Assembly (NCBI GenBank): GCA_947447995.1
Contig: CANFLQ010000015.1
Span: forward strand, 1-34,831
Origin: Bacteroidota bacterium
GTDB lineage: Bacteria > Bacteroidota > Bacteroidia > 2-12-FULL-35-15
Length of the DNA stretch: 34,831 bases
Direction of reading: 5' to 3'
This document shows positions 11,646-22,244 of the stretch, piece after piece. A program made the translations under genes and the position numbers. The notes beneath the pieces were generated by a model. It was not told the origin of the DNA. It was given only the letters and a program-made list of their open reading frames with translations, and searched no databases. Each line of letters opens with the position of its first letter. Position 1 is the stretch's first letter.

Positions 11646-11706
11646 TAATATATTTATCCATGAAAATCAAAAGTTATACTTTTGATTTTCATGGATAAAT
11701 ATATTA
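11646..11706. repeat. Palindrome P1: perfect 29-bp inverted repeat, 3-nt centre (TAT), upstream of the AAA_14 ATPase
   Basis: TAATATATTTATCCATGAAAATCAAAAGT-TAT-ACTTTTGATTTTCATGGATAAATATATTA; arms checked base by base. Confidence 0.97.
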
Positions 11707-11712
11707 CCTTTG
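11681..11712 (+). promoter_or_regulatory. predicted Bacteroidota sigma-A promoter (TTTG - 20 nt - TACCTTTG) of the AAA_14 gene
   Basis: TTTG at 11681-11684 and TACCTTTG at 11705-11712; the -33 element lies inside the right arm of P1. Confidence 0.6.
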
Positions 11713-11716
11713 CATT

Positions 11717-12889
11717 ATGATACAACGTATAGAATTAACTGAATTAACCATATTATTAAAAACAAACCCTGTGGTTGCACTGCTGGGAGCAAGGCAAATA
11801 GGCAAAACTACTTTGGCAAAACTGTATGCCAAAAAGTCGAAAAAAGAAACCTTGTATTTGGATCTGGAACTGGAAAGTCATTTTAACCGTTTACAAAACG
11901 ATGCGGAAAGTTATTTGTTAAAAAACAAACACAAGCTCATTATTATTGATGAAGTGCAACGTATGCCCAAACTATTTGCACTGTTGCGTGCATTGGTTGA
12001 TATTGACCGTAAACCTGCCCGTTTTTTATTATTGGGCTCATCATCGCCACACTTAATAAAAGGTGTTTCCGAATCATTAGCGGGTCGCATCGCTTATTTA
12101 GATATGGGAGGTATAAACCTGCCCGAAGCTCAAAAAAGTAAAATAGCTCAGGATGCTTTGTGGCTAAAAGGCGGTTTTCCCGTTGCTTTAACTTTAAAAC
12201 AAAATACTGCGGTACATAATTGGTATAGCAACCTTATAAAATCATATACCGAAAAGGATATGAAAGAATTATTTGGTGTGGAATTTTCGTCGGTTACGAT
12301 TCGTAATTTTTGGAGCATGTTAGCGCATAACAATGGTAGCCTCTGGAATAAGGAAAGTTACGGGAAATCGTTAGGTGTAACAGCTCCAACTGTGGGCAGA
12401 TATTTGGAATACATGGAAGGTGCATTTTTAGTTACCCGTTTACAACCCTGGTTCAATAATTCAAAAAAACGATTGGTAAAAGCGCCCAAAATATACATAC
12501 GTGATACGGGTATTTTGCATACACTTATTAGAGCATTGGATATAGATGATCTGTTTGGGAATCCGCATGTAGGTGCATCGTGGGAAGGTTTTGTGATTGA
12601 GCAGATACGGCAATTAAAACCGCCTCATTTGGATATGTATTTTTACCGTACCCACCAAGGCGCCGAAGCCGATATTATTTTGGTAAAAGGTATAAAACCA
12701 ATAGCCTGTGTCGAAATAAAACTATCTACATCACCGCAAGTAAGCAAAGGTTTTTTGCAATCTATCGAAGATCTGAAAACGAAAAATAATTTTATTGTTA
12801 TTCCAACAGGAGATAGCTACCAAACAAAGAATGGAATAAACATTGCAAGTTTATCTGACTTTATAAATATTCGTTTGAAGCATTTGTAA
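11717..12889 (+). CDS. ATP-binding protein, AAA_14 + C-terminal DUF4143 (PD-(D/E)xK-like)
   Basis: 390 aa; Walker A LLGARQIGKTTLAK, Walker B KLIIIDEVQ, LLLGSSS sensor-like, WLKGGFPVAL, and C-terminal EADIILV..IACVEIKLS. Confidence 0.93.
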   Translation: MIQRIELTELTILLKTNPVVALLGARQIGKTTLAKLYAKKSKKETLYLDLELESHFNRLQNDAESYLLKNKHKLIIIDEVQRMPKLFALLRALVDIDRKPARFLLLGSSSPHLIKGVSESLAGRIAYLDMGGINLPEAQKSKIAQDALWLKGGFPVALTLKQNTAVHNWYSNLIKSYTEKDMKELFGVEFSSVTIRNFWSMLAHNNGSLWNKESYGKSLGVTAPTVGRYLEYMEGAFLVTRLQPWFNNSKKRLVKAPKIYIRDTGILHTLIRALDIDDLFGNPHVGASWEGFVIEQIRQLKPPHLDMYFYRTHQGAEADIILVKGIKPIACVEIKLSTSPQVSKGFLQSIEDLKTKNNFIVIPTGDSYQTKNGINIASLSDFINIRLKHL

Positions 12890-12936
12890 TCATCCATGAA
12901 AATCAAAAGTGTCACTTTTGATTTTCATGGATGATT
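12888..12936. repeat. Palindrome P2: perfect 24-bp inverted repeat, 1-nt centre, downstream of the AAA_14 ATPase
   Basis: AATCATCCATGAAAATCAAAAGTG-T-CACTTTTGATTTTCATGGATGATT; shares the 19-bp half-site ATCCATGAAAATCAAAAGT with P1; overlaps the ATPase TAA; a T-run follows. Confidence 0.97.
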
Positions 12937-22193: not shown

Positions 22194-22244
22194 TCTATAA
22201 AAAATAAAGGCTGACGAATTTCGTCAGCCTTTATTTTTTATAGA
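22194..22244. terminator. 51-nt perfect palindrome (25-bp arms, 1-nt centre): bidirectional terminator between GSII and tatA
   Basis: TCTATAAAAAATAAAGGCTGACGAA-T-TTCGTCAGCCTTTATTTTTTATAGA; overlaps the tatA stop and last codons. Confidence 0.9.

What the first reader, a model, noticed from the sequence alone, without database searches (positions are those of the whole stretch)
11646..12936. AAA_14/DUF4143 ATPase bracketed by two homologous near-perfect palindromes: candidate autonomous selfish element
Seen directly: a 61-nt palindrome (29-bp arms) lies 10 bp upstream of the ATPase ATG, and a 49-nt palindrome (24-bp arms) begins within its stop codon. Both contain the same 19-bp half-site ATCCATGAAAATCAAAAGT, but their centres (TAT vs GTC) and outer flanks differ, and each outer flank is itself palindromic. 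The unit (~1.29 kb) carries one ORF, runs opposite to the flanking DUF2851 and pyrF genes, and ends 7 bp from the pyrF stop codon. Established: AAA_14+DUF4143 proteins are widespread, highly paralogous, functionally obscure ATPases in bacteria and archaea. Inference: a single protein gene flanked by palindromes mirrors the REPtron (RAYT transposase plus REP) and IS200/IS605 layout, but with a P-loop ATPase/PD-(D/E)xK-like protein instead of a Y1 transposase. The palindromes could be ends, binding sites or cleavage sites for the encoded protein.
Basis: partly seen in the sequence, partly recalled or inferred. Interest (0 to 1): 0.88.

Follow-up and report, generated by a model that had tools for sequence, protein, structure and literature searches.

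The report
Mobile ATPase-nuclease gene with palindrome box
A very common but untested bacterial gene (an ATPase fused to a DNA-cutting domain, listed as a possible anti-virus defence) carries its own 37-letter mirror-image DNA tag beside its start, and here also after its end, and the tag and gene move between genome positions as one small unit, which makes its function directly testable.

Summary

Each palindrome contains a 37-bp dyad, CCnTGnAAAT-N17-ATTTnCAnGG. It lies just 5' of 75 of 97 relatives from several bacterial phyla, against 1 of 1959 control windows. Searching for the box first in 396 Bacteroidota genomes led to this gene type in 16 of 23 loci read; 5 were solo boxes, one with a faint gene remnant. 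The box overlaps or abuts the promoter and diverges together with the protein, so it is best read as the protein's own operator.

Box plus gene behaves as a mobile unit. The window site is empty in six congeners. Relatives sit elsewhere, and homology between copies stops near the palindrome's outer edge and near the stop codon or right box. Only about 17% have a right-hand box.

Not shown: target-site duplication, recent multi-copy spread, cleavage, or self-driven transposition. It is not a REPtron or IS200/IS605 element. The protein is PDC-S01, a very common, untested defence candidate. I found no paper linking it to a palindrome.

The parts
11646..11706 (.). Left palindrome P1 (61 nt, 29-bp perfect arms, centre TAT)
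   Evidence: longest arm in 40 Markov windows is 12
11658..11694 (.). 37-bp box CCATGAAAATCAAAAGT-TAT-ACTTTTGATTTTCATGG inside P1
   Evidence: conserved geometry: 75/97 relatives vs 1/1959 control windows; box-first search
11705..11712 (+). TACCTTTG, match to the Bacteroidota -7 promoter consensus TAnnTTTG, 4 bp before the ATG (predicted leaderless transcript)
   Evidence: motif within 45 bp of the ATG in 39/56 related genes vs 10/123 control genes; the consensus itself is from general knowledge
11717..12889 (+). AAA_14/DUF4143 protein, 390 aa: AAA+ ATPase (about 1-190), winged HTH (about 192-261), PD-(D/E)xK nuclease (about 264-390); PDC-S01 family
   Evidence: Pfam; PADLOC PDC-S01 6.5e-82; AF2 pLDDT 92.2; invariant GxRQxGKxT (Walker A), D78/E79, E290, E317, D319, E333, K335
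12888..12936 (.). Right palindrome P2 (49 nt, 24-bp perfect arms), starts in the stop codon
12894..12930 (.). 37-bp box CCATGAAAATCAAAAGT-GTC-ACTTTTGATTTTCATGG inside P2
   Evidence: a right-hand box is present in 16/96 relatives vs 1/1959 controls

Best explanation
The window holds a compact single-gene mobile unit: left palindrome box, ATPase-wHTH-nuclease gene (PDC-S01 family), right palindrome box. The 37-bp dyad is most likely the DNA-binding site of the encoded protein, contacted by its winged helix as a dimer or higher oligomer. The upstream copy overlaps or abuts the core promoter, which lies next to the start codon, so bound protein should repress its own transcription. Box and gene are inherited and relocated together, which keeps each protein paired with its own box. 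In about one element in six, as here, a second copy of the box (sometimes with the adjoining promoter segment) lies right after the stop codon, as a second end or a duplicated leader. Shown by computation: box conservation, promoter overlap, co-divergence with the protein, and unit-like relocation with empty sites. Inferred: binding, repression, and the biological role (defence or selfish maintenance).
For: Box upstream in 75/97 clade members vs 1/1959 controls, found in Bacteroidota, Alpha-, Beta- and Gammaproteobacteria and Planctomycetota. Box-first pattern search of 396 Bacteroidota genomes: 29 sites, none for the reversed control pattern; 16 of 23 loci read adjoin an AAA_14/DUF4143 gene, 13 of 20 in genomes outside the class used to derive the motif. 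Box-to-ATG gap clusters near 0, 12, 21, 31-35 and 51 bp; a -7 motif lies within 45 bp of the ATG in 39/56 vs 10/123 controls. Box similarity tracks protein identity (Mantel r=0.26, p=0.002; half-site similarity 0.55 at 30-40% identity rising to 0.90 above 80%). Unit mobility: six congeners have pyrF next to DUF2851, 9-82 bp apart, with nothing between; copies at 81-86% identity sit near atpG or maf instead; pairwise DNA homology starts near the left palindrome edge and ends near the stop codon or right box in most pairs with different flanks. Another copy sits next to Cas1, where a congener has Cas1 directly after the preceding ORF. Confident model with wHTH and nuclease folds; catalytic residues intact.
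Against: No binding or expression data. Co-divergence is not stronger for the wHTH segment than for the ATPase or nuclease (regression weights 0.11 vs 0.15 and 0.16). 22 of 97 clade members have weak or no box at the threshold. A right-hand box at the stop codon is not needed for autorepression. Five box-like sites have no gene within 1.5 kb, one of them with a faint C-terminal fragment. The motif was derived from part of the same data, although the box-first search in other genomes supports it.
Confidence: 0.6

Rival explanations
1. Self-mobilising element of a new kind: the ATPase-nuclease binds the boxes as element ends (or as target) and cuts there, so that box-gene(-box) excises, copies or homes into new sites; box autoregulation is secondary, as for many transposases.
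For: Palindromes at both ends here and in about 17% of relatives; sharp unit boundaries and empty sites; intact PD-(D/E)xK motif; solo boxes in genomes without a clade-1 gene; truncated box-plus-gene remnants beside intact copies.
Against: No target-site duplication or common target could be defined; over 80% of copies lack a right-hand box; no recent within-genome duplicates (best pair 58% identity).
Confidence: 0.25
2. Passive cassette: an ordinary autoregulated gene moved only by host recombination. The upstream palindrome is an operator; the downstream palindrome is a bidirectional terminator or a leftover of a duplicated leader.
For: Most copies have only the promoter-side box; the right copies in L144, L097, L093, L123 and L190 include leader sequence next to the box in direct orientation, as a tandem duplication with gene loss would give; P2 lies between convergent genes and is followed by a T-run.
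Against: P2 has the same 37-bp geometry and half-site as P1, not a generic terminator; right boxes tightly abut the stop codon in several elements (L013, L015, L077, L080, L091, L108, L123); copies with over 80% identical proteins occur at unrelated loci within one genus.
Confidence: 0.35
3. Defence role with the box as self-recognition or self-control site: PDC-S01 degrades foreign DNA and its box keeps the nuclease off or marks self.
For: Protein is PDC-S01 by PADLOC, described as the fourth most common (putative) defence in prokaryotes with validation pending (PMC12988326).
Against: No anti-phage data; the defence assignment rests on genomic embedding, which is also expected for a mobile gene.
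Confidence: 0.3
4. REPtron or IS200/IS605-like single-strand transposition with hairpin ends.
For: Layout only: one gene between palindromes.
Against: No Y1/HUH domain, only AAA_14 and DUF4143; catalytic motif is PD-(D/E)xK; palindromes are not dispersed (19-mer unique to the element; boxes rare).
Confidence: 0.02

Closest known systems
PDC-S01 (PADLOC defence candidate; AAA_14/DUF4143 single-gene family)
   Same: The protein is a clear member; ATPase fused to PD-(D/E)xK as described in PMC12988326; wide horizontal spread.
   Different: No source found mentions a conserved palindromic box or a box-gene(-box) mobile unit.
Archaeal AAA+ ATPases SSO1545 (2FNA) and PABY2304 (2QEN)
   Same: Best structural matches of the predicted model over about 355 columns.
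   Different: TM-scores only about 0.5, 15-16% identity; no known cis element from these entries.
REPtron (RAYT plus REP) and IS200/IS605
   Same: Single gene flanked by palindromes.
   Different: No Y1/HUH transposase, no dispersed palindromes, promoter-side box dominant.
Autoregulated transposase/repressor operators (general knowledge)
   Same: Dyad site on the gene's own promoter.
   Different: 37-bp fixed geometry attached to an ATPase-nuclease across phyla; extra copy after the stop codon.

Membership tests
PDC-S01 / AAA_14-DUF4143 | Profile match over most of the protein | tested here: met
   PADLOC PDC-S01 E 6.5e-82, residues 2-348; Pfam AAA_14 and DUF4143 above cut-off
PDC-S01 / AAA_14-DUF4143 | Walker A/B and PD-(D/E)xK residues intact | tested here: met
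   Invariant in a 25-sequence alignment including the window protein
PDC-S01 / AAA_14-DUF4143 | Anti-phage activity | not testable with these tools
   Literature says validation pending
REPtron / IS200-IS605 | Y1 HUH transposase | tested here: not met
   Only AAA_14, AAA_22, DUF4143 hits
REPtron / IS200-IS605 | Dispersed non-autonomous palindromes in the genome | tested here: not met
   19-mer found only at the element apart from one 2-mismatch site; 29 boxes in 396 genomes
Classical insertion sequence | Defined ends at both sides | tested here: inconclusive
   Met in this copy; right end present in only 16/96 relatives
Classical insertion sequence | Target-site duplication / precise empty site | tested here: inconclusive
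   Empty loci found but flanks too diverged or rearranged for base-exact junctions
Classical insertion sequence | Recent multiple copies within a genome | tested here: not met
   Best of 42 within-genome pairs 58% identical
Autoregulatory operator | Conserved dyad overlapping or abutting the promoter of its own regulator gene | tested here: met
Autoregulatory operator | Binding and repression by the gene product | not testable with these tools
   needs EMSA/reporter

The most novel reading that the evidence does not exclude
A widespread class of minimal mobile elements in which one ATPase-wHTH-PD-(D/E)xK protein recognises a 37-bp palindromic end and moves or homes its own gene; a very abundant putative defence gene would then be, in origin, a selfish element.
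Probability: 0.25. Interest if true: 0.92.

Novelty: new variant of a known kind. Interest (0 to 1): 0.72.

Why it matters
PDC-S01 is reported as the fourth most common defence system (putative) across prokaryotes, with 29,494 instances in Bacteria and 9,986 in Archaea, and its function is untested (PMC12988326). A conserved 37-bp cognate DNA site found beside the gene across bacterial phyla gives the first concrete substrate for biochemistry: binding, ATPase stimulation, cleavage and repression can all be assayed on a defined sequence. If the protein acts on the box to relocate its gene, a large 'defence' category would need reinterpretation as mobile elements.

Tried and rejected
REPtron/IS200: rejected, no Y1 domain and no dispersed palindromes. 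Known RNA family: Rfam gives only sub-threshold miRNA-precursor matches on the long hairpins, treated as noise. Palindromes as chance or generic terminators: rejected for this box, although short terminator-like palindromes do match the loose variable-gap pattern. Exact empty site / target duplication: attempted on Mesorhizobium and Agrobacterium plasmids (modular rearrangement, integrase loss and truncated copies blur the ends), Thermus thermophilus megaplasmids (an IS lies beside one end), a 40-genome Bacteroidia genus and Limnohabitans relatives: none gave a base-exact junction. Flanking direct repeats of 60-70 bp in L131 and L156 looked like long duplications, but the same repeats or gene fragments are rearranged nearby, so no claim is made. 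Agrobacterium L252/L147 shared boundaries were first taken as unit ends, then explained by loss of an adjacent integrase gene. wHTH-specific co-divergence was tested and not found to exceed other domains.

Full report
Observation. Two palindromes bracket the ORF 11717-12889 exactly as described: P1 11646-11706 (29-bp arms) and P2 12888-12936 (24-bp arms) share the half-site ATCCATGAAAATCAAAAGT. The half-site occurs at no other place in the assembly with 0-1 mismatch. Simulated windows of the same dinucleotide make-up give at most 12-bp arms. The protein matches AAA_14 and DUF4143 and PADLOC's PDC-S01. AlphaFold gives a confident three-domain model (pLDDT 92.2): AAA+ domain, winged helix, PD-(D/E)xK-like C-terminus (domain reading mine from the secondary structure and motifs). 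Walker A (GxRQxGKxT), D78/E79, E290, E317, D319, E333 and K335 are invariant or nearly so in 25 relatives. The nearest solved folds are archaeal ATPases SSO1545 and PABY2304.

The same kind of palindrome recurs in the family. The own genome has seven DUF4143 genes; four have a long near-perfect palindrome 7-30 bp before the start codon, each with a different sequence. Over 97 relatives the hairpin score upstream is far above that of other genes in the same loci (40% vs 3% at score 14 or more, Mann-Whitney p about 2e-32); downstream it is 16% vs 1%. Related copies are not independent, so the p value is a guide only.

A fixed 37-bp box. Clade members with at least 36% identity share CCnTGnAAAT-N17-ATTTnCAnGG with dyad symmetry. 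It scores 24 or more in 75 of 97 upstream regions, 16 of 96 downstream regions and 1 of 1959 control windows. It is present in Bacteroidota, Alpha-, Beta- and Gammaproteobacteria and Planctomycetota; a Thermus copy has a related but degenerate version. A search starting from the box alone, in 396 Bacteroidota genomes, found 29 sites and none for the reversed control pattern. Of 23 loci read, 16 adjoin an AAA_14/DUF4143 gene (13 of 20 in genomes outside the class used for the motif), five are dyads without a gene within 1.5 kb, and two look like chance matches in or near genes. One of the five (L313) has a weak C-terminal gene fragment next to the box. In four of the five genomes with such solo boxes no gene of the same clade was found. 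Other clades of the family have their own upstream palindromes, more weakly: 21 of 78 vs 5 of 267 controls.

Promoter overlap. In Bacteroidia the -7 motif TAnnTTTG lies within 45 bp of the start codon in 39 of 56 elements vs 10 of 123 control genes. It is typically 4-5 bp before the ATG or inside the right half of the box, and the box-to-ATG gap clusters near 0, 12, 21, 31-35 and 51 bp. This is what an autoregulatory operator would look like. Box similarity rises with protein identity (Mantel r=0.26, p=0.002), but not specifically with the wHTH segment.

Mobility. The genus (36 genomes) has four close copies (the window's and three at 81-86% identity to it) in a patchy distribution, near pyrF, atpG or maf (two at maf). 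Six congeners have pyrF and DUF2851 9-82 bp apart with nothing between them. DNA homology between close copies with different flanks begins near the left palindrome edge and ends near the stop codon or right palindrome in L013/L014, L013/L015, L097/L108, L114/L115, L122/L131 and, within about 25 bp on the left side, L035/L017; L156/L169 and L129/L131 show the sharp left edge only, and L126/L127 the right edge only (some ends are cut by contig ends). Another copy (L078) ends on the start codon of a Cas1 gene (Pfam E 2e-24), where a congener has Cas1 directly after (overlapping) the preceding ORF. Within genomes the copies are old and divergent (best pair 58%). Truncated box-plus-gene remnants and other DUF4143 genes often lie nearby.

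Right-hand box. Where present it usually lies within a few bases of the stop codon, though in L134 and L118 it lies 30-65 bp away and L083 has three copies. In L144, L097, L093, L123 and L190 the repeat extends beyond the box in direct orientation. This fits either a second element end or a duplicated leader whose gene was lost.

Interpretation. The best-supported reading is an autoregulated ATPase-wHTH-nuclease gene whose cognate box travels with it as a compact unit. Whether the protein itself moves the unit is open: base-exact empty sites were sought in several data sets and not obtained. The family is a listed, untested defence candidate (PMC12988326). Searches of the open literature for DUF4143 with palindromes, PF13635 and PDC-S01 gave no report of the box, within the limits of that library.

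Noticed in passing
L078 (same class), 551-2709 -: A box-plus-ATPase unit sits directly before Cas1: its stop codon overlaps the Cas1 start. The ORF two genes upstream looks like a Cas9 C-terminus to me, but Pfam gave no match.
   Followed up: partly
L243, about 1501-1538: A 44-bp near-perfect palindrome of similar outer sequence precedes a patatin-like gene instead of an AAA_14 gene.
   Followed up: no
L136, L170-L172, L174, L180, L187, L198, L206, L213, L215: DUF4143 ATPase genes of different clades lie within 2.5 kb of each other more often than expected by rough estimate.
   Followed up: partly
L118, upstream and downstream boxes: The downstream box has the two arms swapped relative to the upstream box while the centre keeps its orientation.
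   Followed up: no
L083, downstream of the gene: Three box copies in a row about 85-90 bp apart after the stop codon.
   Followed up: no
window 22194-22244: 25-bp-arm palindrome between convergent genes with the look of a bidirectional terminator; unrelated to the box.
   Followed up: no
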